From: Roseivirga sp. E12
GTDB taxonomy: Bacteria > Bacteroidota > Bacteroidia > Cytophagales > Cyclobacteriaceae
Length of the DNA: 64,000 nucleotides
Assembly: GCF_017592825.1 (NCBI RefSeq)
Contig: NZ_JAGFMD010000001.1
Location: 186,001-250,000 of the forward strand
Direction: 5' to 3'
Below the pieces are notes generated by a model. The model was not told where the DNA came from and searched no databases. It saw nothing but the letters and a program-made list of their open reading frames with translations. Numbering within the stretch: position 1 is the first letter of the stretch; each line of letters opens with the position of its first letter. Made by a program: the position numbers and the translations under genes. Positions 1 to 41,565 of this stretch are shown piece after piece.

Positions 1-1
1 G

Positions 2-202: not shown

Positions 203-204
203 TC

Positions 205-960: not shown

Positions 961-1754
961 ATGCCCATGGCAACTCTGGCTAAGTCTAGCTCTTCGAAAT
1001 TATGAGTGACCTTTTTGACCTTGCCGTCAGGGCCAATCAGATAGTGCGTGGGGTAGGCGAGGTTGACTAAGTTTTCATCGATGAAATCGCCCTGAAGTGG
1101 AATGACCTTGTAGTCAAACTGTGTCTCTTGCAGAAACGCTTTTAAGGCTTCGGCTTTATCGAGTGCAAGACTAATAAAGATGATATCTTCACGGTTTTGA
1201 TATGCCTTTACCAACTCGTTGAGGTCTGGCATTTCCTCGATACATGGAGCGCAGGCGATAAACCATGTTTTTAAGAATACGGTCTTTCCCAAAAGATCAT
1301 CCCTAGCGTAGTAGTTCCCATCGAGGTCGATGAATTCATAGTCAGGAAAGTCCCTTCCTTCCTGTAAGAAATGCTCCAGTGCTGTATAACCATCCACTTC
1401 TACCATGCCACTGATGGAAGTATCAGCATTCTCCGAGATGGCTAACAACTGATAATACTTTTGTTTTGACTCGTCTTCAACTTCCACTGCAATGAAGTCT
1501 CCCGTATTGAGTTTTTCTAGAAAATCCCTCTTAGTAATTTCGGCCCCGTCAGTGTCAAGTGGGTTGAACTCAGTGGAAAGAATGATGTGGCCCTTGTGAT
1601 AGGTCCACCATGTCATTTTATCCTTTTCTAGGTGAGCCTGAAGTGCTTTTATCGAGCCATATTGAGTAGTGAGCACTCTACTTTCTTTGGATGGCCCACT
1701 GCATCCAAACGAAAGGGACATGATCATTAATAAAAGGGCCAACTTGCTCCGCAT
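957..1754 (-). CDS. TlpA/ResA-like thioredoxin-family lipoprotein
   Basis: 265 aa. The N-terminus is a lipoprotein signal (MRSKLALLLMIMSLSFGC, lipobox SFGC). The C-terminal half is a thioredoxin fold of the TlpA/AhpC-TSA type with the redox motif C-A-P-C in WFIACAPCIEEMP and a cis-proline region near AYPTHYLIGPDG. In this family such proteins are membrane-anchored disulfide reductases that act on cytochrome c or other exported proteins. The N-terminal 130 residues before the fold are typical of Bacteroidota TlpA-like lipoproteins and have no assigned role. The gene converges on the unknown 251-aa gene with overlapping stop codons. No partner such as a c-type cytochrome biogenesis gene lies nearby, so the substrate is unknown. 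Confidence 0.88.
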   Translation of the reverse strand: MRSKLALLLMIMSLSFGCSGPSKESRVLTTQYGSIKALQAHLEKDKMTWWTYHKGHIILSTEFNPLDTDGAEITKRDFLEKLNTGDFIAVEVEDESKQKYYQLLAISENADTSISGMVEVDGYTALEHFLQEGRDFPDYEFIDLDGNYYARDDLLGKTVFLKTWFIACAPCIEEMPDLNELVKAYQNREDIIFISLALDKAEALKAFLQETQFDYKVIPLQGDFIDENLVNLAYPTHYLIGPDGKVKKVTHNFEELDLARVAMGI

Positions 1755-1835
1755 GATACCATAAATATAAGGGACGTAATTATCAGTTGATGTTTCTTTT
1801 CAGAAAAGACTATCTTAAAACCAAATAGAGAAATT

Positions 1836-2204
1836 ATGCACATCAATCCGACTCCCGAACAACAGCAGCAGTTTATGGAAATGCCTGATATTGGGCCTTT
1901 GTTTATGATTAACATGCTAAAGTTCAAGACGGGTGGACTTGATAAATACCAGGCCTATATTAAAGCCGTAGCACCATTGATCGCTGAGGTTGGGGCTGAA
2001 CTGGTATGGTCTGGTCAACCGATGGGTATGCTGATTGGTCCAAGTGATGAACGCCTATGGGATGCCGTGTTGATTGTTAAATATCCTAATAAGATGGCCT
2101 TGGCTCAGCTCGGAGGTCACCCTGACTATCCTGGACACTTAAGAACAGAAGCACTTGCCGATAGTCGGCTAGTCGCTTGTACTGAAATGGACTTCTCTGT
2201 CTAA
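1836..2204 (+). CDS. DUF1330-like small protein
   Basis: 122 aa, no signal peptide. The sequence fits DUF1330: a dimeric alpha/beta (ferredoxin-like) fold with the early GPLFMINMLKF strand, Y-x-x-Y helix (KYQAYIKAV), the VGAELVWSGQ strand and a WDAVLIVKYPNK strand followed by a helix. The molecular function of the family is unknown; small-molecule binding is often suspected. The gene lies alone, divergent from the thioredoxin lipoprotein, with about 80 nt between start codons in which both promoters must lie. The ATG at 1836 is chosen because it is followed directly by family-like sequence. Confidence 0.8.
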   Translation: MHINPTPEQQQQFMEMPDIGPLFMINMLKFKTGGLDKYQAYIKAVAPLIAEVGAELVWSGQPMGMLIGPSDERLWDAVLIVKYPNKMALAQLGGHPDYPGHLRTEALADSRLVACTEMDFSV

Positions 2205-2353
2205 GTCCTTCTATTATGCCCGTTTATCAATATTGGGCCAAATCTTGATCATTTTCGTGTATCACATGATGATGTGAAATTGCCAAAACGGTTGTTTCTT
2301 CTCGCTGAACTGAGGTTTCTTGGGTGAATGTTTACTCATAAACTAAAGCAACA

Positions 2354-3757
2354 ATGAGATCTATTAAGCCTTTTCTATCCCTTTTTATTTGTCTTCAACT
2401 ATTAGCCATTTCCGCTTGCGGTGATAAAGAATCAGAAGCTGATCTAATGGAAATATCCTCCTTAGAGCCACCGGCATTGTATTGTGGTGAGTCTTTGAGT
2501 ATTAAGGGAGCTAATTTCAGTTCGCGGCTAAGTGAAATGAAAGTGCTGCTTCAGGGCAAGACTTTGAAAATTCTTGACTTGACAACCACACGAATCCTCG
2601 TTGAAGTTCCTGATGCCGTAAGCTCCGGACCGATAACTGTCCAAAGAGGAAACCAGGAAGTACAGAGCAGCCAAGACCTGACCATTTTAGTGGCCGATCC
2701 ACCAGTGATCACCGCTGTTTCACCGAATGAGGGATTCTTAGGCGAAGAGATAGAGATTATCGGAGAGAATTTTGGTGATGATCTGGCTAACGTTTCTGTA
2801 AACTTTTATGGTACGATCGGTGAGGTAGTTGCGGTCAATAGTACTTCCATCAGAGTGAAGGTGCCGCTTAAATTCAACAGCGAGGGAGAATTGACTGTCA
2901 GGGTAAAAGGGCAGAGTATTACTACTGAGAACAACTTTAAAATCAATACCTCAAGAGGCTCCTGGCACATTCCTGGTTGGGATATCCGATATCACGACAA
3001 TCACCCGATAGAATCTGAACACTTTATGGTCTACAGTGATGGGGCAAGTCAAGAGATGCGTAGAACCATATCTGAGGAGGCTGAAACGGCTTTGGCGGAT
3101 ATCAAAACCATCATAGACTATCAGGATGGAGATTTTGACTTTCGACCAGAATGGGCTACGGTATGGGGAGCCAACAAGATGCATATTATGGCCGACTATA
3201 ATCAGGCAGCCGCTTCGGGCTTGGCCTATCGCGATGGCTGCATTATACGGTCCAGAGATTCTCCTCGATATGATGGCGATCTGGATCGTTGGTGGAAGGT
3301 TTTTCAGCATGAGATCACGCATATCACTGAGTTCTTGATGATTGGTGATTATTCCCGTAGACAATCGAATACCGTTTGGATGCGTGAAGGCTTTGCTAAT
3401 TATGGGGCTCGAAATCACCGAATTCAAACGATTAAGGAGCTAGACGATTGGCAGCAACTAATGACCAATGTTCCTGGAGAAGGGAATCCGATTCAAATTA
3501 AAGTCTGGGGTGACTTTCCGCAAGAGATACGCGACTCTTTTAGAACCATTGAATACTATGGATTCTTCGAGCTGGTAGTTCGTTACTTGCTGGAAGACGA
3601 TGAACTTGGCAATGACATACAGGATATGAAGAACTACTATGATGATCTTGGTGCAGGAGTTCCACAGCCTGAGGCTTTCCTAAATCATTTTGGAGTTGCC
3701 ATGGATGATCTAGAGGCTAATTTCTGGACCATCATGAGAGAATTCCTTCAAAACTAA
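2354..3757 (+). CDS. TIG-domain lipoprotein with a gluzincin-type metallopeptidase site
   Basis: 467 aa. The lipoprotein signal ends at AISAC. Two IPT/TIG immunoglobulin-like domains follow (about residues 36-115 and 118-198; G-x-x-L-x-I-x-G-x-N-F signatures ESLSIKGANF and EIEIIGENF). The C-terminal 260 residues carry H319-E-I-T-H323 and, 21 residues later, E345 in REGFANY. This HExxH plus downstream Glu arrangement is the zinc site of gluzincin peptidases. The protein is therefore probably a surface or periplasmic metallopeptidase presented on an Ig-fold stalk. The substrate cannot be read from the sequence. A bidirectional terminator separates it from the convergent S9 peptidase gene. Confidence 0.82.
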   Translation: MRSIKPFLSLFICLQLLAISACGDKESEADLMEISSLEPPALYCGESLSIKGANFSSRLSEMKVLLQGKTLKILDLTTTRILVEVPDAVSSGPITVQRGNQEVQSSQDLTILVADPPVITAVSPNEGFLGEEIEIIGENFGDDLANVSVNFYGTIGEVVAVNSTSIRVKVPLKFNSEGELTVRVKGQSITTENNFKINTSRGSWHIPGWDIRYHDNHPIESEHFMVYSDGASQEMRRTISEEAETALADIKTIIDYQDGDFDFRPEWATVWGANKMHIMADYNQAAASGLAYRDGCIIRSRDSPRYDGDLDRWWKVFQHEITHITEFLMIGDYSRRQSNTVWMREGFANYGARNHRIQTIKELDDWQQLMTNVPGEGNPIQIKVWGDFPQEIRDSFRTIEYYGFFELVVRYLLEDDELGNDIQDMKNYYDDLGAGVPQPEAFLNHFGVAMDDLEANFWTIMREFLQN

Positions 3758-3799
3758 TTCATACAGTTAATTACAGTATTAGGCACTGGGTCAAATAAT

Positions 3800-3833
3800 A
3801 AGGCCTCGATCAGTATTTTGATTGAGGCCTTTG
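3800..3833. terminator. Bidirectional rho-independent terminator
   Basis: AAGGCCTCGATCA and its near-complement TTGATTGAGGCCTT form a 13-bp stem with a short loop. T-rich sequence follows on the + strand, and on the - strand the hairpin is followed by TTATTATTTG. It lies between two convergent genes. Confidence 0.8.
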
Positions 3834-3852
3834 ACTTTTCTTTTGTGAGGGT

Positions 3853-5907
3853 TTACCTCCTGATATCTACCGATACAGTTTCGGTTCGGTACTTGTCGAA
3901 CCAACCCAGAATAGCAGAGACTTTGGCAATTAGATTACTCGGTCTTGCCGCTATACCATGAAAGGCACCTGGAATCCTAACCATGGCTGTCTCAACACCT
4001 TTCAACTTTAGGGCACTGAAATACTGCTCTGACTCATGAATAGGAGTTCTTAGGTCAGCTTCTCCCGTCAGTAACATGGTTGGCGTAGTTACATTGCCAA
4101 TCAATGAGATAGGAGAGTGCTTCATATACTTTTCAGGATCTTCCCAAGGTTTCTTCTCGAACCAATAACGCGTAGCGAAAGCCGACATATCTGAGTAGAG
4201 CGCCCAGCTGTACCAGTTGATCACTGGCTTGGCCACTACAGCGGCTTTAAAGCGATTGGTCTTACCAACGATCCAGGAAGTCAAAACACCGCCTCCAGAG
4301 CCTCCTGTAACAAACAATTGGCTTTCATCGATATATCCACGACTGATTACTTCGTCCACACCAGACATTAAGTCGTCATAGTCTTTGCTAGGGTAGTTCT
4401 TGTCAATCTCGTTCCCAAAGTCATAGCCATAACTCGTGCTACCTCGTGGGTTGGTATAGAGCACTACATAGCCCGCAGCAGCCATCAGCTGAATTTCGCC
4501 CGAGAAAACCGGGCCGTAGCTTGAGAACGGTCCACCGTGGATTTCCAAGATCAATGGATACTTTTTGTTGGGATCGAAATCTGGCGGTGTAACGATCCAT
4601 CCGTTGATATCGAGTCCATCTACCGAAGACTTGTACCAAATCTCATCAACCTGACCTAATTGCTTATAGTCAAAAAGGTCCTCATTCACTTTAGTGACCC
4701 TCTTGTTGTTTCCAGCGTTACCTACGCCAAGATCGGCCGGTTCGTGTGTTTCGGCCCAAGTGTAGGCGTAATTGCCATTGTCGGCAATAGAGTAGGCGCC
4801 TGAGGTATAAGGCCTTCCCAGAGAAACACCGCCAAGCCCTTCGGTAATATCTGTTACTTTCCCTTTCAGGGTGATATAGGCGATCTTAGTATGCGCCTTG
4901 TCTACATACTGGAAGTAAAGTCCTTTGCCATCAGCAGACCATTTGATATTGGAAACGTCCCTATCGAGTTTACCCGAAATCAACTGACTGTTAGAACCAT
5001 CTACATTGGCTACATATAGCCTGTTGATCTGATAGCCCTTATACTTATCATCGAAGCCGAAGTAGGCCATTTTCTTGCCGTCAGGAGAGATACGCGGATT
5101 GCTATCTGGGCCATATCGATCGGTTAGTTTGGTAAGCTTTCCATCGCTGAGGGAGACACTATAGATATCTGAATCGGAGCCTTCCAGCTCTCTGTCTTCT
5201 CTCATATTGGCACTGAAGTAAAGGTGCTTTCCATCCTTTGCCCAGACGGCATTGCCATGGTTAAATGGTCCTTCTGTGAGCTGTCTTGGAGTACCTCCGG
5301 AAACAGGAACAGTGAAGAGTTGTTGGTTGCCCGGTGTTACCTCACCCACACCATCTCGTCTCCAACCCAGGTTGTCCACATACTTTGGTGGAGCGTTCCA
5401 GGTGGCACCTTTCGGCTTAGCCGGCATCTTAATCGGTGAAGGCTTTACTTTCGGAACAAACATATTAAAAGCCAGATGCTTATCGTTTGGAGACCAAGTA
5501 ATACTTGAAGGTGACTTTTCTGAATTAACAAGCACCATTTCATCTCCTGAATCCATCCAGCGGAGATAGATTTCTGACTTGCCGGACTTGTTCGAAGCGT
5601 AGACAATGCGGCTACCATCATGCGACCATCTTGGTGAGCGATCGTTTTGCTCACCCGTAGTTAGAGGTCTGTTTTGCGAACCGTCAAAATTCGCTATCCA
5701 AAGGTTAGATAAGTTCTTATCGGTCATGATGTCCTTGAAGTTGCGGACATAAACAATCTTCTGACCGTCAGGAGAGATTTGTGGATCGGATACAAACTCG
5801 AGGTTAAAGATGTCGAGCATTTCTATCTTGTTAGAGACCTGTGCCTGAACGGATAGGCATAGAAACGCAAATAATACCACTGCGGTGAGCTTCTTGAGAT
5901 ACTTCAT
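3853..5907 (-). CDS. Secreted S9-family prolyl oligopeptidase/dipeptidyl peptidase
   Basis: 684 aa starting at the ATG at 5907 (MKYLKK...). A longer frame to 5949 would put 14 polar residues before the signal peptide. The signal peptide ends near SVQAQ. The N-terminal part is a beta-propeller with WD40/PD40-like repeats (SPDGQKIVYV, SHDGSRIVYAS, SPDGKKMAYF). The C-terminal alpha/beta-hydrolase domain carries the S9 triad: S537 in GGSGGG, D618 in GEADLRTP and H650 in GAFHG. Enzymes of this family cleave oligopeptides, often after proline, in the periplasm or outside the cell. The gene is monocistronic, with a terminator beyond its 3' end. Confidence 0.93.
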   Translation of the reverse strand: MKYLKKLTAVVLFAFLCLSVQAQVSNKIEMLDIFNLEFVSDPQISPDGQKIVYVRNFKDIMTDKNLSNLWIANFDGSQNRPLTTGEQNDRSPRWSHDGSRIVYASNKSGKSEIYLRWMDSGDEMVLVNSEKSPSSITWSPNDKHLAFNMFVPKVKPSPIKMPAKPKGATWNAPPKYVDNLGWRRDGVGEVTPGNQQLFTVPVSGGTPRQLTEGPFNHGNAVWAKDGKHLYFSANMREDRELEGSDSDIYSVSLSDGKLTKLTDRYGPDSNPRISPDGKKMAYFGFDDKYKGYQINRLYVANVDGSNSQLISGKLDRDVSNIKWSADGKGLYFQYVDKAHTKIAYITLKGKVTDITEGLGGVSLGRPYTSGAYSIADNGNYAYTWAETHEPADLGVGNAGNNKRVTKVNEDLFDYKQLGQVDEIWYKSSVDGLDINGWIVTPPDFDPNKKYPLILEIHGGPFSSYGPVFSGEIQLMAAAGYVVLYTNPRGSTSYGYDFGNEIDKNYPSKDYDDLMSGVDEVISRGYIDESQLFVTGGSGGGVLTSWIVGKTNRFKAAVVAKPVINWYSWALYSDMSAFATRYWFEKKPWEDPEKYMKHSPISLIGNVTTPTMLLTGEADLRTPIHESEQYFSALKLKGVETAMVRIPGAFHGIAARPSNLIAKVSAILGWFDKYRTETVSVDIRR

Positions 5908-5983
5908 GTGAATAAGGTTGATTTGACGATTAAGATAACCAAATCCCATATCACTTTAAAAGTCCATTTGATAAGTGGGAGGG

Positions 5984-6059
5984 AGAATTCAGAATTGAGA
6001 ATTAAGAATGATGAATTAGGAATGAAGAATGATCAATTAAGAATTAAGAATGAAGAGAG
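5984..6059 (+). repeat. Imperfect GAATTAAGAATGA-type tandem repeat
   Basis: A/G-rich degenerate tandem units (GAATTGAGAATTAAGAATGA and variants) cover about 75 bp. Similar AT-rich degenerate repeats are common between genes of Bacteroidota. No coding or structural role is evident. Confidence 0.7.
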
Positions 6060-6278: not shown

Positions 6279-6461
6279 CTAGCGCTCACATGTTGTGAGT
6301 GCTGATCTTGAAAAAAGGATACGCACTACAAGTGCGCACCAGTGGGAAAACCTCTTTCTACCCTGAGCGGAGCCGAAGGGTCTTCTCAAGTAATCGATTT
6401 GCTATATTGGGTGAGTTCCCTCGACTTCGCTCGGGATAAAAAGGGAGGTGGTATCAAGAGT
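6279..6461 (+). repeat. Family B two-hairpin element plus REP-like tail, copy 1
   Basis: The core has hairpin H1 (AGCGCTCAC 6281-6289 with GTGAGTGCT 6295-6303) and hairpin H2 (CGCACT-ACA-AGTGCG 6322-6336) followed by CACCAGTG. The tail holds REP-like palindromes of the form CCCTGAGCG-GAGCCGAAGGG and CCCTCGACTTCGCTCGGGA. The whole unit is repeated directly after, at 6470-6670. Short copies of the core occur at 8299-8350 and 9007-9073. Confidence 0.75.
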
Positions 6462-6469
6462 CTACCAAT

Positions 6470-6670
6470 CTAGCGCTCACCTGTCTGCCGATAGGCAGGC
6501 TTGCAGTGAGTGCTGATCTTACAAAATGGCTACGCACTACATTGCGGACCAGTGGGAAAACCTCTTTCTACCCTGAGCGAAGCCGAAGGGTCTTCAAAGT
6601 CATCGATTTGCTATATTGGGTGAGTTCCCTCGACTTCGCTCGGGATGAAAAGGGAGGTGGTATCAAGAGT
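6470..6670 (+). repeat. Family B element, copy 2 (tandem)
   Basis: Nearly identical to copy 1 from CTAGCGCTCAC through the final GGTATCAAGAG. The loop of H1 is enlarged by a small palindrome (CCTGTCTGCC-GAT-AGGCAGG, 6480-6499) that copy 1 lacks. The copy ends 16 bp before the start codon of the phosphatase-like gene. Confidence 0.75.
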
Positions 6671-6685
6671 TTATTTGAAAACGAT

Positions 6686-7657
6686 ATGAGTATGATTAGG
6701 TTTTTAGCGCTGGCATTGATTAGTGCACTTTTTGCTTCTGCTTGCCAAAGCCCACCCAAGGAAAGAAAAGTAGTCTTTATCCTCCTAGATGGAATACCTG
6801 CAGATGTATTAGAGGCCTCCAACACTCCCTATCTCGATGAGATAGCTGACGAGACAGGCTATACACGGGCTTATGTAGGTGGAGAGAAGGGTGGAGCATC
6901 TGAATCGCCCACTATCTCTGCAGTGGGCTATAATAGCCTATTGACAGGCACTTGGGCCAACAAGCACAATGTCTGGGGCAATAGCATCAAAGCCCCGAAC
7001 TACGACTACTGGAGCATATTTAGGATAGCCAAGGAACATAATCCAAACCTGAAGACAGCAATCTTCTCTACCTGGCTAGACAATCGCACCAAGCTAATCG
7101 GGGAGGGGCTTCCAGAAACAGGGAATCTCAAAATGGACTATGCCTTCGATGGCTTCGAACTGGATACGGTGCGCTTTCCGCATGATGCCGAACGCCAATA
7201 CATCCTGAACATCGATGAGATGGTGGCCACAGAAACAGCCGACTACATAGCCAGCGATGCACCAGACCTCTCTTGGGTTTATTTAGAATATACAGACGAT
7301 ATGGGACATCGCTATGGCGATAGTCCTCAAATGGCGAAGGCAGTCGAACTAGCCGATGCACAAGTAGGACGCATTTGGAAGGCCGTTCAACAGCGGGAAG
7401 CTCAGTATGATGAAGACTGGCTAATCATTATCACCACCGACCATGGCAGAACAGCAGTCAATGGCAAGGGCCATGGTGGCCAATCCGACAGAGAGCGCAC
7501 CACATGGATAGTCACCAATTACCCAAAACCATTACCATCTTTCTATCAGAACCCCGGTATAGTGGATATTATGCCCTCAATTGTTAATTATATGGACTTA
7601 ACCATGCCTAAGGAAATAGCCGAGGGGATTGATGGGGAGGCTTTTATTGGGAGGTGA
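6686..7657 (+). CDS. Alkaline-phosphatase-superfamily lipoprotein
   Basis: 323 aa from ATG 6686. The frame stays open upstream to 6506, but that part is family B repeat sequence and precedes the signal peptide, so the longer start is rejected. Lipobox ASAC with C20. Alkaline phosphatase/nucleotide pyrophosphatase superfamily metal-site signatures are present: D35 in ILLDG, candidate nucleophile T76 in SPTIS, D204-D205-x-x-H208 in TDDMGH, D252-H253 in TTDHGR and H263 in GHGG. The product is probably a membrane-anchored phosphodiesterase or phosphatase facing the periplasm; the substrate is unknown. The close upstream repeats may carry or disturb its promoter. Confidence 0.87.
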   Translation: MSMIRFLALALISALFASACQSPPKERKVVFILLDGIPADVLEASNTPYLDEIADETGYTRAYVGGEKGGASESPTISAVGYNSLLTGTWANKHNVWGNSIKAPNYDYWSIFRIAKEHNPNLKTAIFSTWLDNRTKLIGEGLPETGNLKMDYAFDGFELDTVRFPHDAERQYILNIDEMVATETADYIASDAPDLSWVYLEYTDDMGHRYGDSPQMAKAVELADAQVGRIWKAVQQREAQYDEDWLIIITTDHGRTAVNGKGHGGQSDRERTTWIVTNYPKPLPSFYQNPGIVDIMPSIVNYMDLTMPKEIAEGIDGEAFIGR

Positions 7658-7706
7658 GGATACGCTGAATTTGGTCCGAACAAGACTGCTAAGACTAGAG
7701 AAGTTA

Positions 7707-8288
7707 TCAGCAAATATTATTAATGTACTCCTCAACCTGTTTTTCGTCACTCAGGTCATAGTATCCGGAATTATACCAGTTTACGCCTATAAAGCTGAAT
7801 TGCTTTCCGAACTCTATGAGTCCTAGTTTTAGGTTTTGTCTGTCTACATCATTTTCAGTCTGTCCGGTGATCCAAATATTTTCAAGTATGTCTGCATCAC
7901 CTTCAAGGATAACAGCGAAATCCCTAGAGCCATACCCCAATGGTGCATTGTCGCCTTCTAAAAGTCCAACCCCTTGCATAACAACTTTATCAATTCGATT
8001 GAGGTTGGCATCATTCAATATTTCTTTTACTCGACTTAGCGGAACATGCTTATCAAATGTCTTCACGGGTTTTTCTCCAATTACCGTGATGTCTGTAAAT
8101 CCGGTCCCGTCAAAATGTTCTTTTCCAAAATCATCAATCCTTTTAGTCTCATTTATAACGAATTCTAAATTCTCTTTCGGAAGTAATTCAATCATTAGAT
8201 TGTCGTCTTCCCACATATGCAGAATTTGAGATGGTTCAAATGGCTTTTGGCTTTTTCGTTGAAGTCCGAATAGTTTTATTAGGTTCAT
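7707..8288 (-). CDS. Unrecognised cytoplasmic protein (193 aa)
   Basis: ATG start at 8288 (MNLIKLFGL). No signal peptide, membrane segment or motif that I recognise. It is acidic, with central strand-rich sequence (FTDITVIGEKPV, DKVVMQGVGLLEGD, SRDFAVILEGDADI). It is the most downstream (leftmost) of three minus-strand genes of unknown function in the accessory island. A family B repeat core (8299-8350) lies immediately upstream of its start, so the gene could be the body of a cassette. It might be an immunity-type or single-domain accessory protein, but nothing in the sequence proves that. Confidence 0.65.
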   Translation of the reverse strand: MNLIKLFGLQRKSQKPFEPSQILHMWEDDNLMIELLPKENLEFVINETKRIDDFGKEHFDGTGFTDITVIGEKPVKTFDKHVPLSRVKEILNDANLNRIDKVVMQGVGLLEGDNAPLGYGSRDFAVILEGDADILENIWITGQTENDVDRQNLKLGLIEFGKQFSFIGVNWYNSGYYDLSDEKQVEEYINNIC

Positions 8289-8298
8289 TTTTTAATAA

Positions 8299-8350
8299 GT
8301 GAGAGCTGAGTTTGTAAGAAAGGTACGCACTACAAGTGCGAACCAGTGCG
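8299..8350 (+). repeat. Family B core, copy 3 (short)
   Basis: GTGAGAGCTGA...AAGGTACGCACT-ACA-AGTGCGAACCAGTG matches the H1 right arm and all of H2 of copies 1 and 2, without the REP-like tail. It lies between two minus-strand genes, 11 bp from each. Confidence 0.7.
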
Positions 8351-8361
8351 TTGTCGTATGG

Positions 8362-8961
8362 CTAACTAAAATTCTTTCTCAAAGAGTCGTTTCTTGTTAT
8401 TTTATATCCAGCAACTTCTGTTGATTCGTTATTCTTCAATTTAGCATTTCCTCCAAGAATATGAGCTAGTCTAAATGCGGCCCAAGATCCACTGTTGGCG
8501 CTTACCCATAAATGATCAAAGAAACCCAAGATTCCCTTCATTCTCCATTTGCTTGAATCAGCTTTTTCTCGTCTTATTAGTTCAATCGTTGTTCCTTCTG
8601 GGTGTTCCAGAAACCGGAAATCTGTTCGGTTTGGAACTGAGAGTTCAGTTTCTCCTTTTGACCACATCTGTTCGTCATATGAAAATGACTCATAGGGATT
8701 CCATTCCTTAATTGTCACATAGATTGAAGTCCCATGAACGGTTGTGGCTTTGAATACATCTCCATTGTAAATGATGTTATTGTCACCAAGTGATTTCACT
8801 TTTTCCTCAAGCCTATAGCGCCCATAAATAAAGGATATGGCATCATAATTTAGTCTGCTCTCTACATGAAACATGCTAATGATGGATTTCCAAGCTTGCT
8901 CTTTGGTTAATCCTTTTTTTAATGAAACTGCCTTGGCAGCTGAATAGACTTTAATGCTCAT
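8362..8961 (-). CDS. Unrecognised protein (199 aa), weak SRPBCC-like pattern
   Basis: Start taken at ATG 8961 (MSIKVYSAAK). A GTG at 9006 would add 15 residues but would reach the edge of the family B repeat. The middle of the protein (IYVTIKEWNPYESFSYDEQMW, then FLEHPEGTTIELIRRE) resembles the strand pattern of START/SRPBCC ligand-binding proteins. The N-terminal helix-rich 60 residues and the C-terminus (GYKITRNDSLRKNF) do not help. The call is weak. The gene is flanked on both sides by family B cores (8299-8350 and 9007-9073), the arrangement expected of a mobile gene cassette. Confidence 0.6.
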   Translation of the reverse strand: MSIKVYSAAKAVSLKKGLTKEQAWKSIISMFHVESRLNYDAISFIYGRYRLEEKVKSLGDNNIIYNGDVFKATTVHGTSIYVTIKEWNPYESFSYDEQMWSKGETELSVPNRTDFRFLEHPEGTTIELIRREKADSSKWRMKGILGFFDHLWVSANSGSWAAFRLAHILGGNAKLKNNESTEVAGYKITRNDSLRKNFS

Positions 8962-9006
8962 TTCTAAATCATTTATAACTATGCGATTAATGTAGGAACT
9001 TACCAC

Positions 9007-9073
9007 CCTAGCGCTTACTTGCAGTGAGTGCTGGTCTTGTAAGGTGGGTCCGCACTACATTATGAACCAAGGG
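9007..9073 (+). repeat. Family B core, copy 4
   Basis: CCTAGCGCTTAC-TTGCA-GTGAGTGCTGGTCTTG...CCGCACTACATTATGAACCAAGGG: H1 is well preserved, while H2 has lost its right arm. It lies between the 199-aa and 1107-aa minus-strand genes. Confidence 0.7.
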
Positions 9074-9109
9074 TGTAGTGTCATTACCTATACACCGCGT
9101 TAACAAGTC

Positions 9110-12100
9110 TTATTTTGGCGTCCAGAGTTCACCATAAGTTTTAAAATGTCCAGCTGCTATTACTGTTTCTATTTCTCCCTGCCATAATTTCTCAGAGAAC
9201 AGTCCTGACCCTTCCATATTGAAGTCAATCGTCTCATTGTTTCCGATAAACAGAACTAAGTTCTTATGGCTCTCGAATTTGTCTTCAAGGTGCTTGAAAA
9301 ATTTATGAACTCGGCTATAGTGCTCCCAGAAGTGCTCCCCTTCAACCTCGGTACTTCTAAATCGTTTGAAGACATCTGAATGAAATACATTAGTCGGTGA
9401 AACTATCATTCTGAAAGAAATTGATTCTGTTGAAAAAGAGTATAGCCTATCTATGAATTCTTTAATCCTCCTATTGTTGAATCCTTGTTTCGCGCTGGAT
9501 AGAAATATGTACTTGGCATCATTCGTAGATGTGGCGTTCCCATTCCAACAATACATATCGTCCTTGTTCTGTTGAGCATTCTTCTGCATTGATGTTACAA
9601 AATCGTTTATACCCAACTTTGTCTTTTTTATTAGACTGCGGTATGCCTCTACGTCTTGATGAGTCCTCATCTTCTTTGTCGCAGTGGAGTCAACTATGTC
9701 GTAGTAGATTACCTGGTCGTAGCTAATTGTTCCATCGCCATGCTGCTCAAACCTATCTAATTCAAAACTCACAGCTCCACGAGTTTTAGACATCTCATAA
9801 TTTAAAGAACCAATTTCCTTTTGCAAATACTTTGCGGTTCCAAGTATGTCAAAGTTTCTGAAATCAGAATTGGAGTGTCCATCCAGGTTAGACACCAGGG
9901 TTAAGTCTCGCTCATTGAGTAGATTAACATCAACTGCAATTGTTCTCTCCATGAAGGCTTTTATTTTCTTAACACTTGAACTAATCCTTTTTTTTCTTGT
10001 TTTTTCGATTTCCTCAGGATTGAGTAATAGAAGCAAGGTCAGAAAATTAACATTTAACAGAAGTCGATGGCCAATTCTGGCCATAACTTCAATATCTTTA
10101 TCAAATATTGATTGTTCATCTTCTCGTTCGAGAATTGATAATGAATCCCAATAAGACTCCCAATCGAGTACGGCAGTATCTTGATTCAAAGCGGTCAATA
10201 TTCTAGTTCCCTTGGAAATTGCTTGTTGTGCACCACTGTTCCTCCAACCGCGAAATTTTTTATGAATACTATTTAGGGCGGTAAAGCCGTCCCCTTGAAC
10301 GATTTCCTTTCGCTTGTGGTACGGGACTGCCTTCCCTTCTGCGATTGCATTGAGAACTGAAACAACGGTTGGACTAAGTCTATCTATGAAAATATCATGC
10401 TCGACATAGAGAGCTGCAGCAACATCTTTTGGTCTAAAACAAGTACTTAGAAAGATTAAATCATCATCCGTCAAACGTAACGTGTCATCTTCTTTAGTTA
10501 CTCCCTTTACTAAAAGTCCTAAAATCATTCCAAACTTCTTTGATTCAGGAATAGAGGAAGTAGATATCTGAATTGCATCAAAGTGCTCCTTGAACCGGTA
10601 ATTGTTATCTCCTGCTCGTTCTATCACCTGTCTTTCAAGTAGGTGCCGAGAAAGCCACAAATCGGACTCAACGTTGTAGTTATTGCGTTTCTTCATCTTC
10701 ACAACCGCTCCATGCAAATGAAATCCAATTTTTGCTACGCCATCTTGCCCAGAAGTTCCGTATTGTAATTGAAAAATGCCCCTCGTTACACCAACACGGA
10801 TAAATAGGACTAGTAATTTTTCAAGATATAGCTTCGGAAGTGCTTCCTTGTCGTATGACTTGATGGCCGTTTCAATTAAGTGACCACATAATTGAGTCTC
10901 TTGCTCAGCGAATTTGACATCCTCTCCATGCCGATATGCTCGATATATTGCCCCTGTACTTTCATCATACCGTGTTACTGGAACACAAATTCCTTTGTCT
11001 ATACTATAGTCCAGAATAAGTGAGAGCACATTTTTGACTTTGTCAGTCAGCTCATACTCATAAGTTTTCTTGAGGTATGTGAGAATCCCAGACCATGTGA
11101 TTCCAGTTTCAAGCCTATCGATTGCTCTAATTTCATCCCATTGATTGAGCGGGGCATGTTCTCTAACTTTAACTCTGGAGGGTAGTTCCTTATACCTGTA
11201 TAGGCTTAGAAATATATTGCTGAAATCAGCAAATACGTTTCGATAATTGTCTTGGTTGAAATCATTTATTTCTACTACATTCAACTGGCCTTCCTCGAAC
11301 AAATCTTCGAATTCAGTATTACTAGTTTCAATTTCGGAAGGCTCAATTACTCCGTTACTTAAAAAGCTTAGGGTATCGTTTTCAAGTAAATACCTGCCAA
11401 TTTCGTGGACTATGTGATAGTTCTCTTTACCGAAAAGCAAATCTACATCCAGTTGCCTAGTCTCTATTCTCAATTTCTTTTCGAGTACGTATTCAACATC
11501 TTTTCGGAATATCCTGGCAAGCAGAATAGATGAAATATATTGAATAAGTCGCAACTTGCTTGTTAGGGAGTTGTGTTGCTTGCCTAACCTAGCTATATCC
11601 TTGGTTTCAAATCCAATCTTGTAGAGTGATGATTCTAAGGAATCAGTAATCAATGAGATGTCGTCAGATAATATTGGTTTAAAGGTTACAATCGGCATAA
11701 CCGACAATTCAAATCCCCAATCATTTTTAATTGAGTAGACGCGTATCTTGGAAATTTCAACCAAATTGAAAACAGATTCTCCAATTCTACTCCTAAAATC
11801 ATCAAGCACTTCAGTAGTTGGGAAAAATGACAATGAACTAACTCCATTCAGCTCCTGCATTGTGTTGGTTATATCGTATACATTCCAAGCCTGCGAAGAA
11901 ATGAATAGTTGCCAGTACTTTTCTTTAATTTCTAACTGATGGAATAGGGGGAAATCAACTGCATAAGGTCGAGGAGCGATAGATAATGCAGATACAATTG
12001 ACGCACAGAAGGTCAGGGATCTTTGGTCAGAAAGAACAACTGCCTTGTAGTCCGGATCAATGCATTCTGGAACCCAATATTTTTCATTTGTACAAAAAAC

Positions 12101-12433
12101 GTAAGTCAGGACTTCTTTTGCTCCATAATTTTCAAGAAGATTTGACTTGGCTTTCCATATTGTTGTCCCACAAATAACAATGTCATCCACAATAGCAACA
12201 CGCTTGTTCTGGAAGATAAATGTGTCAGTGTCTAGCAACTTATCGCTAACAACGGGTTTATCAATTACAGTAACTCCAACTGAGGTCAATAAGTCGTAGA
12301 GACAGCAGAATTTTCTAGACATGAGGACGAATACATCACAATCCACTTTAGACAAAGTCTCTCCGAATTCAAGAAGTTTAACTGCTAAGTCTGGCTCAAA
12401 ATGAGCTAATATTTTATCTTTCATATTCTTCAT
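9110..12433 (-). CDS. Large protein with PRTase-like N-terminus and class III cyclase-like C-terminus
   Basis: 1107 aa, no signal peptide. Residues about 75-115 contain VAIVDDIVICGTTIWKA, matching the PRPP-binding loop of type I phosphoribosyltransferases (D83-D84, G89-T90-T91), with hydrophobic strands on either side. About 750 residues of helix-rich, charged sequence without a recognised domain follow. Near the C-terminus, VIYYDIVDSTATK (D912, D915) matches the first metal-binding strand of class III adenylate/guanylate cyclases (D-I-V-G-S-T). STNDAKYIFLSS (D972) may be the degenerate second metal strand. PRTase-like domains in large proteins are known from prokaryotic conflict systems. A nucleotide-signalling or defence role is inference. 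Family B repeats lie beyond its 3' end, and the ECF sigma operon begins 275 bp beyond its 5' end. Confidence 0.7.
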   Translation of the reverse strand: MKNMKDKILAHFEPDLAVKLLEFGETLSKVDCDVFVLMSRKFCCLYDLLTSVGVTVIDKPVVSDKLLDTDTFIFQNKRVAIVDDIVICGTTIWKAKSNLLENYGAKEVLTYVFCTNEKYWVPECIDPDYKAVVLSDQRSLTFCASIVSALSIAPRPYAVDFPLFHQLEIKEKYWQLFISSQAWNVYDITNTMQELNGVSSLSFFPTTEVLDDFRSRIGESVFNLVEISKIRVYSIKNDWGFELSVMPIVTFKPILSDDISLITDSLESSLYKIGFETKDIARLGKQHNSLTSKLRLIQYISSILLARIFRKDVEYVLEKKLRIETRQLDVDLLFGKENYHIVHEIGRYLLENDTLSFLSNGVIEPSEIETSNTEFEDLFEEGQLNVVEINDFNQDNYRNVFADFSNIFLSLYRYKELPSRVKVREHAPLNQWDEIRAIDRLETGITWSGILTYLKKTYEYELTDKVKNVLSLILDYSIDKGICVPVTRYDESTGAIYRAYRHGEDVKFAEQETQLCGHLIETAIKSYDKEALPKLYLEKLLVLFIRVGVTRGIFQLQYGTSGQDGVAKIGFHLHGAVVKMKKRNNYNVESDLWLSRHLLERQVIERAGDNNYRFKEHFDAIQISTSSIPESKKFGMILGLLVKGVTKEDDTLRLTDDDLIFLSTCFRPKDVAAALYVEHDIFIDRLSPTVVSVLNAIAEGKAVPYHKRKEIVQGDGFTALNSIHKKFRGWRNSGAQQAISKGTRILTALNQDTAVLDWESYWDSLSILEREDEQSIFDKDIEVMARIGHRLLLNVNFLTLLLLLNPEEIEKTRKKRISSSVKKIKAFMERTIAVDVNLLNERDLTLVSNLDGHSNSDFRNFDILGTAKYLQKEIGSLNYEMSKTRGAVSFELDRFEQHGDGTISYDQVIYYDIVDSTATKKMRTHQDVEAYRSLIKKTKLGINDFVTSMQKNAQQNKDDMYCWNGNATSTNDAKYIFLSSAKQGFNNRRIKEFIDRLYSFSTESISFRMIVSPTNVFHSDVFKRFRSTEVEGEHFWEHYSRVHKFFKHLEDKFESHKNLVLFIGNNETIDFNMEGSGLFSEKLWQGEIETVIAAGHFKTYGELWTPK

Positions 12434-12708
12434 ATGTGATTCTATTTATGCTTGCCCCCCCGTAGGATAACGACATGATTTTGTGTCATCATACCTCCAA
12501 TGAGACTTGCTATATGCGCCTAGTTTAGTTTTCCAGAAAAGCGTAGTGAGTGAAAGGTATTGTTGTGTTTTATCTCCTATGAAGAAAAGAAATTATTGGT
12601 ATAATCACAAATAGAGAATTTGGGAGGTAGTTGTTGGTGACAAACGGAGCCTCAACTAATTCCTTTCCATTTTTCCTTGAGAAATGATTAATATGTACTT
12701 TCAAGGCA

Positions 12709-13221
12709 ATGCAGGAATCAGTCTGTCAAGAGGAGGTTTATAACACCTTATACCACAAGCATTTCAATGGCCTAAGGAACTACGTCTACTACAAATGTGG
12801 TGACTTAGATCAGGCAGAAGATATCGCTCAGGAGAGCTTTATCCGGCTTTGGCAAAAGTGTGCCGATGTGCTTTTTGAAAAGGTCACCGGCTTTGTACAT
12901 ACCGTGGCCAATCGCTTATTTCTGGATCAGGTACGTTCGAAAAAGGTCTCTCTAAAGTTTGAGAAGGATCAGGTAACGCAACAGAACAATGAAGATCCTT
13001 ACCATATCCTAAGGACAGAAGAGTTTCGCCAACGGATAGAAGAGGTGATCTCTGATTTGCCCGAAGGGCAGCGAGAAGTGTTTTTACTCAACAGAATTGA
13101 GAAGCATACTTATAAAGAAATTGCGGAGATGTTGGGTGTTAGCCAGACAGCCGTTGAGAAACGCATGGCCAAGGCTTTGGTCAAACTAAAGGACAGAATC
13201 GAAGAATTTAAAAATATTTAA
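12709..13221 (+). CDS. ECF RNA polymerase sigma factor (FecI-like)
   Basis: 170 aa. Sigma-70 region 2 is at about residues 10-75 (YVYYKCGDLDQAEDIAQESFIRLWQ) and region 4 helix-turn-helix at about 110-160 (LPEGQREVFLLNRIEKHTYKEIAEMLGVSQ). There is no region 3, as usual for ECF sigma factors. It is followed at 43 nt by a FecR anti-sigma gene and then a TonB-dependent receptor with an STN domain. In that known arrangement, ligand binding by the receptor signals through the periplasmic STN domain and FecR to release this sigma factor, which then transcribes the receptor genes. The region upstream lacks a clear housekeeping promoter. Confidence 0.94.
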   Translation: MQESVCQEEVYNTLYHKHFNGLRNYVYYKCGDLDQAEDIAQESFIRLWQKCADVLFEKVTGFVHTVANRLFLDQVRSKKVSLKFEKDQVTQQNNEDPYHILRTEEFRQRIEEVISDLPEGQREVFLLNRIEKHTYKEIAEMLGVSQTAVEKRMAKALVKLKDRIEEFKNI

Positions 13222-16991: not shown

Positions 16992-17055
16992 AGACTTCCT
17001 TTGAGTCGCCATTTTTTCGGGATAACCTTTTCTGAAGACCTTCGTTTCTTTAGTT

Positions 17056-17076
17056 GTTTTACAAAATAGTAAAAAC
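17056..17076 (+). promoter_or_regulatory. Candidate PadR operator
   Basis: Dyad GTTTTAC-N6-GTAAAAAC ending 4 nt before the ATG of the padR-like gene. PadR regulators bind dyads and commonly autoregulate; the assignment is by position and symmetry only. Confidence 0.45.
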
Positions 17077-17080
17077 CTAT

Positions 17081-17416
17081 ATGAGACAAGGTATTGGAGA
17101 GTTCGAGGAGATAGTCCTTCTGGTAGTAGCCGCCCAGCATGATCATGCTTACGGCTTATCTGTAACAGAGGCAATAGAAGTTCAGTTGAAACGATCCGTA
17201 AAACTGAGTAGTGTACATACATCTTTGTATCGTCTTGAAGAGAAGGGGCTTGTCGAATCAAGGATAGGGGACACATCCACCTTGAGAGGTGGCAGAAAGA
17301 AAAGACATTTTATCATTACCACACTAGGCAAGCGCGCACTTATAGAAGCTCAGGAGGCACGCCAGACCTTATGGAATCAGATTCCCAGTAGCGTACTAGA
17401 CATTTCGAAAGGTTGA
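17081..17416 (+). CDS. PadR-family transcriptional regulator
   Basis: 111 aa from ATG 17081 (MRQGIGEFEE). A TTG at 17054 would extend the frame through the candidate operator. Winged-helix PadR domain: helix EFEEIVLLVVAAQHDHAYGLSVTEAIE, recognition region SSVHTSLYRLEEKGLVESR and the R-G-G-R-K-K-R wing. Such proteins repress transporters and are released by small-molecule ligands. The stop overlaps the TTG start of the following permease gene (TTGA), so the two are translationally coupled. A second pair with the same layout is at 41.5-38.6 kb on the other strand. Confidence 0.92.
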   Translation: MRQGIGEFEEIVLLVVAAQHDHAYGLSVTEAIEVQLKRSVKLSSVHTSLYRLEEKGLVESRIGDTSTLRGGRKKRHFIITTLGKRALIEAQEARQTLWNQIPSSVLDISKG

Positions 17417-20040
17417 GTACAAACAATCCCATAAAGCCTCCGAAACTGGCCACCCGCATTTTTAAGGCCTATTGTAAGAATGAATTGGCGGATAGCATAT
17501 TAGGTGATATGCAGGAGCAGTTTTTTAAACAGGCGGAGCATGGGAAACCTATGCGCGCCAAGCTCCGCTACTGGCAAAACGTTTTGACTTTCGTCAATCG
17601 ACACACCCTGAAATCAGATAAACCAAACCCCTGGTTCTCTAAAAACCATACCTCTATGCTGAGAAATTACACGCTGGTTACCTTCAGAAACCTTAAAAAG
17701 AACCCACTTTTCTCTCTTATCAACCTATTAGGCCTGGCTGTCGGCTTGGCGAGTAGCTTGATCATATTTTTATATATACAGCAAGAGTTGAGCTTTGACA
17801 GCTTTCATCGCAATGCCGATCAAATCTATCGTGTCACCAGCACCTATGCGCGCCCTTCAGCTACTTACAACTGGGTGAGAACGCCACCAGCACTGGCACC
17901 AGCCATCAAGAATAACTTCCCAGGAATTGGTAAGGTAACGCGACTCCGATCAACGGACGAACATGTCTATTTCATAGAAGACGATCCTTTTATTCTAGGA
18001 AGGGGCTTTTATGCGGACTCCATGTTCTTGGAAATGATGGACTATCCGCTGGCCATGGGTAATCCTTTGACCGCTCTTGATGAACCCAATTCCATTGTCA
18101 TTTCTTCTGATTTAGCCATGCGCTTCTTTGGCAACCAAAACCCGATGGGGAAAATCATTCGGTTTGACAACGAGCTGCCTTTACGCGTAACAGGTGTGCT
18201 GGAAGAGCTTCCGTCCAATACGCATTTAGACTTCGAGTTATTGATCTCATTTACCACTTATGTGGTGCCCGAAGGCTACTTGGCCGATTTGAATAGTTGG
18301 TCTTGGGGCGGCTTTTACACTTTTGTTGAGCTCAATGCAGACTTGGATGTCGACCAGCTAGAAGAGAGAGTGACAGGACTCTATGAAGAAAACTACACCC
18401 GAACGGATACCAAGGTAACCGCCCACTTTCAGCCCCTGAAAAAACTCTATTTAGACTACGGGCATTTTACCAACCATGGGGACTTGGTGAGGCTAGGCGA
18501 TAAGAATACTATTTTCACGCTGATGGCCATTGCCATTCTGGTACTCATAGTGGCCAGTCTCAATTATATGAACCTATCGACCGCCATTTCACTGAATCGC
18601 GGCAAGGAAATCGGCATGAGAAAGGTGATGGGTGCCGTCAGTGGTAGAATCAAGGCCCAATTCCTTTGGGAATCAATACTGCTTGCTTTGGCGAGTATGT
18701 TCATTGCCATAGGCCTCACATGGCTAGCACAACCATTGTTCTCTGACTTATTGCAGATTGAACTGCCTACGGATGTTGCAGGTATGTTAGGCATTCTTCC
18801 AGTGCTCTTGGGGGTAACTTTGCTCATTGGCTTTCTGGCGGGACTTTATCCTTCATTCGTGCTCTCTACTTTCAGTCCTATTAAGGCTTTAAGGGGAAGG
18901 TTAAAAACTTCAGCGGTGGGCAATAGAGTCCGCAAAGGGCTTACCGTTTTTCAGTTTGTGGTATCGATCGTTTTGCTGACTGGTAGCTTCCTGATCATTA
19001 AGCAGACCCAGTTTATGAGAGAGCAACCCCTAGGTTTTGAAACCGAGAATGTGCTGATCTTAAATGTCTTGGGTGTAGATATGAACGAGCGCTATGATGT
19101 TTTAAAGAATACCATGCTCAGAAATCCTTTTGTTACGGGGTTCAGCGAGTCGTCTCATCAGTTTAGTAACTCATCGAGCAGCGGTCCTGCACACTTAGAA
19201 GGCGCACCGCCAAGTGAGAACTTTCAATTGAACTACTATCAAACAGGCTATGACTTTATAGACTTAATGGACTTGGAGATCACTCAGGGACGCTTCTTCT
19301 CCAAAGACTTCCCCAATGACACGGCAAGTGCCATGATACTAAACGAGACTGCCGTGGCTCAAATGAAGCTTGAAGATCCGGTTGGTCAAAGGATTCAGTT
19401 CAACAACCGAGATAGAGTAGTAGTGGGGGTGGTCAAAGACTTTAACTATAGTTCTTTGCATGCACCGGTCGCACCCATGGCGATCGTGATGCCATTTACC
19501 ATACCTTCGACCTTCCTGATCAAGACACAAGGTGATAACCTAACTCAGGTTATATCATCCATTGAAAGTGATTACAAAAACATTATACCAGAAGCGCCTT
19601 TCGACATTAAGTTCCTGGACGATGACATTGCGCGCATGTACGATCAGGAGATAAGATTATCACGACTAGTGGGTCTCTTCTCTTCGTTAGCAGTGATTCT
19701 GGCTTGCTTAGGCTTGTATGGTCTTGTTACCTATTCGGTGCAGGCAAGGCTTACAGAAGTGGGAATTAGAAAGGTCTTAGGAGGCTCATTGAGCAAGATT
19801 ATGGTCCTGCTTTCGAAGCAATTCTTTATACTAATTCTTGTGGCCAACCTCTTGGCTTGGCCTTTAATTTTCTGGTTAGGCAGTAACTGGCTAAGTAACT
19901 TTCACTATCGCATAGATTTAGACCTTAGCATCTTCCTTTGGCCGACATTGAGCCTATTGCTTATTGCGGCCATTACTGTCAGTCATCAGGTCATCAAAGC
20001 GGCATGGACAAACCCAGTCAAGGTTTTAAGAAGTGAATAA
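17413..20040 (+). CDS. FtsX/MacB-like ABC transporter permease with N-terminal prefix domain
   Basis: 875 aa from TTG 17413, overlapping the padR stop. This start gives STNNPIKPPKLA, matching MSNNTTSPPKWA at the start of the sister permease, which supports it. The prefix domain covers about residues 1-75. It is followed by TM1 (about 103-123), a periplasmic MacB domain, TM2-4 (about 367-490), TM5 (about 511-530), a second periplasmic domain and TM6-8 (752-870), ending NPVKVLRSE. No ATP-binding subunit is encoded beside it, so an ATPase from elsewhere must energise it or it acts otherwise. MacB-type permeases work by mechanotransmission, exporting lipids, peptides or lipoproteins. Regulated by the coupled PadR protein. 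Confidence 0.92.
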   Translation: MSTNNPIKPPKLATRIFKAYCKNELADSILGDMQEQFFKQAEHGKPMRAKLRYWQNVLTFVNRHTLKSDKPNPWFSKNHTSMLRNYTLVTFRNLKKNPLFSLINLLGLAVGLASSLIIFLYIQQELSFDSFHRNADQIYRVTSTYARPSATYNWVRTPPALAPAIKNNFPGIGKVTRLRSTDEHVYFIEDDPFILGRGFYADSMFLEMMDYPLAMGNPLTALDEPNSIVISSDLAMRFFGNQNPMGKIIRFDNELPLRVTGVLEELPSNTHLDFELLISFTTYVVPEGYLADLNSWSWGGFYTFVELNADLDVDQLEERVTGLYEENYTRTDTKVTAHFQPLKKLYLDYGHFTNHGDLVRLGDKNTIFTLMAIAILVLIVASLNYMNLSTAISLNRGKEIGMRKVMGAVSGRIKAQFLWESILLALASMFIAIGLTWLAQPLFSDLLQIELPTDVAGMLGILPVLLGVTLLIGFLAGLYPSFVLSTFSPIKALRGRLKTSAVGNRVRKGLTVFQFVVSIVLLTGSFLIIKQTQFMREQPLGFETENVLILNVLGVDMNERYDVLKNTMLRNPFVTGFSESSHQFSNSSSSGPAHLEGAPPSENFQLNYYQTGYDFIDLMDLEITQGRFFSKDFPNDTASAMILNETAVAQMKLEDPVGQRIQFNNRDRVVVGVVKDFNYSSLHAPVAPMAIVMPFTIPSTFLIKTQGDNLTQVISSIESDYKNIIPEAPFDIKFLDDDIARMYDQEIRLSRLVGLFSSLAVILACLGLYGLVTYSVQARLTEVGIRKVLGGSLSKIMVLLSKQFFILILVANLLAWPLIFWLGSNWLSNFHYRIDLDLSIFLWPTLSLLLIAAITVSHQVIKAAWTNPVKVLRSE

Positions 20041-41530: not shown

Positions 41531-41550
41531 TGTTTTTTTATTTAATAAAT

Positions 41551-41565
41551 ATTTGTATAACAAAT
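41551..41565 (-). promoter_or_regulatory. Candidate PadR operator (second)
   Basis: Perfect 6-bp dyad ATTTGT-N3-ACAAAT, 20 nt upstream of the padR start codon, placed where it would cover the promoter. Assigned by symmetry and position only. Confidence 0.45.

What the first reader, a model, noticed from the sequence alone, without database searches (positions are those of the whole stretch)
9110..12433. Single large protein joining a PRTase-like module to a cyclase-like module
The 1107-aa protein has a clear PRPP-loop signature near its N-terminus (D83-D84...G89-T90-T91) and a class III cyclase first-metal strand at its C-terminus (D912, D915), with about 750 helix-rich residues between. I know of no named family with this order. 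It lies in a repeat-rich island of unknown genes. A nucleotide-signal defence or stress protein is plausible, with PRTase-like and cyclase-like parts making or sensing a ribonucleotide. The function is inference.
Basis: partly seen in the sequence, partly recalled or inferred. Interest (0 to 1): 0.75.

Follow-up and report, generated by a model that had tools for sequence, protein, structure and literature searches.

The report
Likely phage-defence protein with swappable tail
A rare, patchily spread family of large bacterial proteins starts with a phosphoribosyltransferase-like head and ends in an exchangeable tail (cyclase-like here, TIR or nucleosidase-type in relatives), which suggests an undescribed kind of one-protein phage-defence switch.

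Summary
No Pfam, NCBIfam, PADLOC or PHROGs model covers the rest. A second organism has the same head-to-tail architecture (27.6% identity over residues 5-1106, E 1.5e-119). The C-terminal module resembles class III cyclases weakly but above controls, only around the first metal strand; its second metal site is uncertain. A motif search found eight relatives. The six longer ones share residues up to about 740-800 with the window protein (and L016 all of it), but end in a cyclase-like (one), PNP/nucleosidase (four, one partial) or TIR (one) tail; two are head-only fragments. The gene lies in a low-GC cargo at a site where one congener carries a Hachiman pair and another a GmrSD-type protein. 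Best reading: a one-protein, probably abortive, phage-defence switch in which the PRTase head and core sense or gate and the tail is the output, here perhaps cyclic-nucleotide synthesis.

The parts
9110..12433 (-). PRTase-core-cyclase-like protein, 1107 aa (P0001)
   Evidence: full-length relative in L016, E 1.5e-119
11939..12433 (-). N-terminal phosphoribosyltransferase-like domain, about residues 1-165
   Evidence: PF00156 E 3.5e-8 on 50-123; R40, K41, D83, D84, G89, T90 invariant in 8 of 8 rows
12158..12199 (-). PRPP loop VAIVDDIVICGTTI, residues 79-92
   Evidence: family profile aligned to the PurF PRPP loop
11948..11989 (-). Family motif ALSIAPRPYAVDFP, residues 149-162; used as search probe
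   Evidence: A149, L150, S151, P154-Y157 and D160-P162 invariant in 8 of 8 rows; probe
9794..11938 (-). Family-specific core, about residues 166-880, with invariant R498, R501-H-G-E504, N721, K726, W758, W762
   Evidence: 7-row alignment; no Pfam, PADLOC, NCBIfam or PHROGs hit there
9113..9781 (-). C-terminal class III cyclase-like module, residues 885-1107
9698..9700 (-). D912, putative first metal ligand (YYDIVDSTAT)
   Evidence: aligned to the cyclase metal Asp; D in L016
9518..9520 (-). D972, possible second metal ligand in the S-x-ND-x-K-x-IFLS motif; register uncertain
   Evidence: D in L016; but the profile alignment puts N966 opposite the cyclases' second Asp
7700..12450 (.). Low-GC cargo (0.382; left 1-6000 is 0.451, right 12700-64000 is 0.419) in a variable site; holds three minus-strand genes
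   Evidence: flanks syntenic with G731, G741, G732, cargo different
8362..9006 (-). Unknown 214-aa gene in the same cargo; partnership not shown
   Evidence: no Pfam/PADLOC hit; no match at the other held loci
7707..8288 (-). Unknown 193-aa gene in the same cargo; partnership not shown
   Evidence: no Pfam/PADLOC hit; no match at the other held loci
6506..7657 (+). Left flank gene (alkaline-phosphatase-like by reading); its relative lies at the site in G731 and G741
12709..13221 (+). Right flank gene (ECF sigma factor-like by reading), present in all five fetched congener stretches

Best explanation
It is a one-protein conflict (anti-phage) switch. The PRTase-like head and the ~700-residue core form a constant sensing or gating half; the C-terminal module is the output. 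In most relatives whose tail can be read the output is a PNP-type nucleosidase domain (predicted to destroy a nucleotide such as ATP) or a TIR domain (predicted to act on NAD+). In the window protein the output is a class III cyclase-like domain with one well-placed candidate metal ligand (D912) and a less certain second one (D972), predicted to make a cyclic nucleotide when the head is engaged during infection. Shown: the architecture and its conservation, the different tails, the patchy distribution, the location at a site that holds defence genes in two congeners. Inferred: that it defends, that the head senses PRPP or a nucleotide made from it, and that the cyclase-like domain is active.
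For: Architecture conserved end to end in L016. Shared core, different tails: PF01048 PNP in P0004, P0005 (partial), P0009, P0010, with PADLOC 'Effector, PN-superfamily' at 7.8e-17, 9.3e-22 and 1.3e-17 for P0004, P0009, P0010, the three PNP-tailed members scanned; TIR in P0012, Pfam TIR_2 1.1e-10, PADLOC ThsB1 2.4e-13. PRPP-loop D83, D84, G89, T90 and R40, K41 invariant in 8 of 8 rows. The same site holds HamA (2.4e-124) + HamB (E 0) in G741 and a GmrSD-type protein (PF03235 6.4e-28) in G732; ten window proteins of my choice, of 45 frames listed, give nothing better than 3e-5 in PADLOC. The L016 gene lies next to a type I methylase (7.4e-261) and a DUF1016 gene. Patchy: 0 of 18 other congeners have a full-length match; two of the three nearest relatives in the tree are named from other phyla, the third is unplaced. 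Published context, passages only: a PNP effector cleaves ATP in Detocs, and TIR domains degrade NAD+ (PMC11249213); PRTases act in retron and DprA-PRTase defence (PMC12548924, PMC9122126).
Against: No phage assay, no activity. The window protein's own PADLOC match (ShosT, 4.1e-5, loop only) is no better than the best of the ten controls (3e-5). The cyclase resemblance is weak and local; the profile alignment puts Asn966 opposite the cyclases' second metal Asp, and the usual Asn of the N...R pair is not at its place. No receptor for a cyclic nucleotide was recognised beside the gene. In G731 the site holds only a CBS protein with a weak Csx1-like match (3.8e-5). Neighbours of L015 and L026 show no defence gene by reading, and four scanned neighbours of P0004 have no Pfam hit over the cut-off. 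The plasmid and phage searches with P0001 found nothing.
Confidence: 0.5

Rival explanations
1. The PRTase domain is itself the toxic effector, as proposed for retron type III and DprA-PRTase systems, and the C-terminal module only regulates or localises it.
For: PRPP loop intact and invariant; PADLOC ShosT 4.1e-5 for P0001 and PRTase_III-A 0.0013 for P0009, both around the loop only; literature passages.
Against: The C-terminal parts that differ (TIR, PNP) are established effectors, while the head is constant, the usual layout of a sensor with changing effectors (general knowledge).
Confidence: 0.2
2. The C-terminal module is not an active cyclase: the resemblance is a remnant or chance, and the window protein works as a scaffold or by its PRTase alone.
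For: No Pfam or PDB cyclase hit; the match is limited to about residues 908-966, with Asn966 opposite the second metal Asp. In the four PNP-tailed rows the aligned region lacks D972 in four of four and D912 in three of four (P0009 keeps it), and a profile of that region (with the TIR-tailed piece P0012 added) does not match cyclases (probability 0.4%).
Against: Score above 100 of 100 shuffles; the D912 and D972 motifs are both kept in L016 at 27% identity.
Confidence: 0.18
3. A nucleotide-stress or housekeeping signalling enzyme, not a defence protein.
For: No direct defence test. Both end modules belong to nucleotide metabolism or signalling folds.
Against: Rare and patchy, cargo at a variable site with defence genes in two congeners, TIR-tailed relative.
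Confidence: 0.12

Closest known systems
Type I phosphoribosyltransferases, PurF-like PRPP loop (PF00156)
   Same: DD...GT loop, invariant in the 8 aligned members
   Different: Only ~165 residues of an 1107-residue protein; no NCBIfam PRTase model reaches its cut-off
Class III nucleotidyl cyclases (PF00211)
   Same: First metal strand YDIxxST, following helix and next strand
   Different: No library hit; S-x-ND-x-K-x-IFLS and FWEHxSR motifs in place of the usual ones; second metal site uncertain
PNP-superfamily effectors of CBASS and Detocs-like systems
   Same: Four relatives carry such a domain (one partial) after the same core
   Different: Absent from the window protein; here fused behind a PRTase-headed core instead of a SAVED or response-regulator partner (partners recalled)
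Pycsar cyclases (recalled)
   Same: A class III-type cyclase as signal maker in defence
   Different: No PRTase head in Pycsar; no recognised cyclic-nucleotide receptor gene next to the window gene
ShosTA / DprA-PRTase and retron III-A PRTase systems
   Same: PRTase used in phage defence (passages)
   Different: PRTase with DprA or RT partners there; similarity here only around the PRPP loop

Membership tests
Type I PRTase superfamily (PF00156) | PRPP-binding loop with two acidic residues and G-T | tested here: met
   PF00156 E 3.5e-8; invariant in 8 of 8 rows
Type I PRTase superfamily (PF00156) | Pyrophosphate loop and hood; catalysis | tested here: inconclusive
   R40-K41 invariant, which may be the pyrophosphate loop; fold and activity could not be tested
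Class III cyclase (PF00211) | Match to the family model | tested here: not met
   No hit at E <= 1; only weak profile-profile similarity
Class III cyclase (PF00211) | Two metal-binding Asp | tested here: inconclusive
   D912 aligned to the first metal Asp. Second: the alignment offers N966 in the window protein (D in L016); D972 is conserved in both but placed by motif reading only
Class III cyclase (PF00211) | Transition-state Asn and Arg on the last helix | tested here: inconclusive
   R1041 in FWEHxSR kept in L016, no Asn four residues before it; register unproven
Pycsar | Cyclase plus adjacent cyclic-nucleotide-binding effector gene | tested here: inconclusive
   Neighbours P0002 and P0003 have no Pfam or PADLOC hit, so a receptor is not recognised but not excluded; the two scanned L016 neighbours are HsdM and DUF1016
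PRTase-CE (PF24390) | Match to the family model | tested here: not met
   P0001 no hit; P0009 E 0.0017, below the cut-off
ShosT / DprA-PRTase | Whole-length ShosT match and a DprA partner | tested here: not met
   Match only at residues 72-130; no Pfam hit in P0002 or P0003
Defence-locus cargo | Same flanks, different cargo, known defence genes in relatives | tested here: met
   3 of 5 fetched congeners share both sides; 2 of these 3 hold genes of known systems

The most novel reading that the evidence does not exclude
A new one-protein immune architecture in which a PRPP-binding head and an undescribed core directly gate exchangeable outputs, and in the window's branch the output is a built-in class III cyclase: phosphoribosyl metabolism coupled within one chain to cyclic-nucleotide signalling during phage infection.
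Probability: 0.22. Interest if true: 0.82.

Novelty: new variant of a known kind. Interest (0 to 1): 0.6.

Why it matters
Known defence switches with exchangeable effectors mostly use STAND ATPases, CD-NTases or response regulators as the constant part (general knowledge). Here the constant part is a PRTase-like head and an unclassified core. If confirmed, PRPP or a product made from it would join the cues or signals of bacterial immunity, and the tails give a direct experiment: the same kind of head should drive NAD+ loss, ATP loss or cyclic-nucleotide synthesis depending on the member.

Tried and rejected
Integron gene cassettes: intergenic repeats near 8348 and 9073 first looked attC-like to me, but the core sites did not fit by reading, and the 81-nt repeat query has seven matches at E <= 0.001 in the genome, itself included, on three contigs. 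Rejected as an explanation; no integrase search was made.

Free cyclase-like homologues: a 225-aa C-terminal query in 395 phylum genomes gave one hit besides the window's own (G054, E 8.3e-4), which by reading of its locus does not look like a cyclase-like protein.

Profile hits of other PRTases: with A2, two of 394 genomes other than G160; with A5, three of 18 congeners and 86 of 283 others match only between profile positions 56 and 150, in frames too short for the family. Not counted as members.

Other collections: viral contigs with A2 gave no relative; two motif patterns there gave one chance stretch and none. In plasmids P0008 found nothing; P0009 and P0004 found 30 records each, and the 20 listed for each match only their PNP tails. 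In phages P0010 found one record, again the PNP tail.

The RHGE motif at 501-504 recalls histidine phosphatases, but no further motif of that family was seen by reading; not pursued.

Common partner gene: P0002, P0003, P0006, P0007 and two L028 neighbours match nothing at other held loci. The region before the effector in four PNP-tailed members against the cyclase-type C-terminus scores 24.7 against a shuffle maximum of 23.5; a version without the upstream stretch, with P0012 added, scores 22.6 (probability 3%). Suggestive only. Literature: (open-licence PMC only) listed no paper that, from title, start of abstract or the passages I opened, describes this architecture; the listed papers were not read whole, and one search listed 10 of 72.

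Full report
What is there. Window 9110..12433 (-) is an intact 1107-codon frame. Its first ~165 residues are a phosphoribosyltransferase-like domain: PF00156 at E 3.5e-8, with the PRPP loop V79-AIVDD-IVICGTT-I92. A profile of seven members against the PDB returns 51 hits at E <= 1; 49 are PRTases or PRPP synthetases matched around that loop, best an amidophosphoribosyltransferase (E 3.3e-4), and two are unrelated. The other library matches are also loop-local: PADLOC ShosT 4.1e-5, eleven NCBIfam families far below their cut-offs, and PHROG 16932 at 0.0036.

The C-terminus. Neither Pfam nor a PDB profile search recognises residues 885-1107 as a cyclase. I compared a two-row profile (window protein and L016 protein) with 28 class III cyclase domains taken from the window's genome and its relatives. 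The score is 28.9, P 0.0013, probability 18.8%; 100 column shuffles reach at most 21.5, the reversed profile 14.9, and windows of the protein that do not hold residues 908-965 in full at most 19.2. The aligned part runs from the strand with D912 to the strand with the cyclases' second metal Asp. There the window protein has N966 and L016 an Asp; D972, six residues on, is Asp in both. D912 is kept in L016 and D915 is not. So 'cyclase-like' is supported, 'cyclase' is not proven, the second metal site is uncertain, and D915 is not conserved.

Relatives. The protein itself finds one other genome in 394 of the phylum draw and one in 394 of the class draw, none in plasmids or phages, and none in genome contigs with tool-chosen patterns. 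A motif conserved between these three, L-S-x-x-P-R-P-Y-x-x-D-F-P, scanned as DNA over the 84,980-species collection, gave 16 stretches. Eight are relatives, each confirmed by tblastn with the window protein, E 1.5e-119 to 3.6e-32; the other eight gave no match and are taken as chance. The records are named Bacteroidales Phil6, bacterium SY70-5-12, Chthoniobacter flavus (MAG), Bacteroidetes RIFCSPLOWO2_12, a Kapaibacterium, a Pyrinomonadaceae MAG, Niastella vici and a Syntrophus MAG. The scan needs an exact motif, so the true number is probably larger.

Tails. The six longer relatives align with the window protein from near its start to about residue 740-800, and the L016 protein to residue 1106. 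P0004, P0009 and P0010 end in a PNP_UDP_1 domain and P0005 in a partial one, 105 of 233 profile positions. In L015 the gene is broken between two frames; the second piece ends in a TIR domain. L018 and L025 match only the window's residues 34-195 and 1-282. A tree of the N-terminal part (about 150-270 residues) has one split with support 100/99: the window protein with L016, L025 and L018 on one side, the PNP/TIR-tailed members on the other (the L016 row is flagged for its letter make-up). Of the window protein's three nearest relatives, two are named from other phyla (Pyrinomonadaceae, Chthoniobacter) and one is unplaced, while the members known to be from its own phylum (G160, G417) lie across the split.

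The site. The gene, with two unknown genes, forms a cargo of GC 0.382 between flanks of 0.451 (1-6000) and 0.419 (12700-64000). I fetched the site from five congeners, the best five of 38 other genomes by match to the FecR-like neighbour. Three share the left side (peptidase gene, plus the phosphatase-like gene in two) and the sigma/FecR side, with different cargo; two lack the left side and have housekeeping genes there by reading. None of the five stretches carries the three window genes. In G741 the cargo includes HamB (E 0) and HamA (2.4e-124), a Hachiman pair; in G732 a GmrSD-type protein (PF03235 6.4e-28, PF07510 3.4e-17); in G731 a CBS protein with only a weak Csx1-like match (3.8e-5). 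As a control, ten window proteins of my choice, of the 45 frames listed, gave nothing better than 3e-5 in PADLOC; the window protein's own PADLOC match is no better than that. Within the genus, 0 of 18 other genomes hold a full-length match; of 283 further genomes in the class of G160 none does, while 86 match around the PRPP loop alone. Elsewhere, the L016 gene is followed by a type I methylase and a DUF1016 gene, and L028 has a nucleotidyltransferase of the candidate PDC-S09 set nearby. For L015 and L026 I saw no defence neighbour by reading.

How it may work. Constant head and core with an exchangeable tail is the usual layout of defence proteins whose tail is the effector (general knowledge). 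A PNP effector cleaves ATP in Detocs and TIR domains degrade NAD+ (PMC11249213, passages). By analogy the window's tail is the output module and would make a cyclic nucleotide. The head would sense PRPP or make a nucleotide that opens the core. None of these steps was tested. The main rival takes the PRTase as the toxin, as suggested for DprA-PRTase and retron systems (PMC9122126 and PMC12548924, passages). A PRTase also appears in a figure legend on validated systems in the DefensePredictor paper (PMC13092281, passages), with no architecture like this one in the passages seen.

Novelty. No family model searched here covers the core, and none of the papers listed describes PRTase-core-tail proteins as far as titles, abstract starts and opened passages show. 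The principle (a switch with exchangeable effectors at a defence site) is known; the head, the core and the cyclase-tailed branch are not, to my knowledge. I therefore rate it a new variant of a known kind.

Noticed in passing
window 6295-6344, 6506-6555, 8299-8348, 9024-9073: A ~50-nt interspersed repeat (with CGCACTACAAGTGCG in two copies) lies upstream of the phosphatase-like gene and between the three cargo genes. A stretch 87% identical to window 9018-9078 lies at the cargo edge of the same site in G731 (L049 6317-6377), so it may take part in cargo exchange.
   Followed up: partly
L049 2956-3960: The G731 cargo at the same site has a CBS-domain protein with an RNDVMH stretch that fits a HEPN R-x4-H motif by reading; PADLOC gives only a weak Csx1 match (3.8e-5).
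   Followed up: partly
L005 14688-16397: Two genes of unknown family, the first with a clear and the second with a possible membrane segment, follow the PNP-tailed gene on the same strand and may form an operon with it.
   Followed up: partly
L015 463-4358: The TIR-tailed member is broken between two overlapping frames; whether this is a sequencing error, decay or two genes is open.
   Followed up: no
L025 2246-3079 and L018 5735-6214: Two relatives keep only the PRTase part and about 30-120 further residues; in L025 transposase-like genes lie nearby (reading). Decay or stand-alone heads are both possible.
   Followed up: no
window 17054-20040 and 38574-41563: Two copies of a small PadR-like regulator next to a ~875-aa permease-like gene, by reading.
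   Followed up: no
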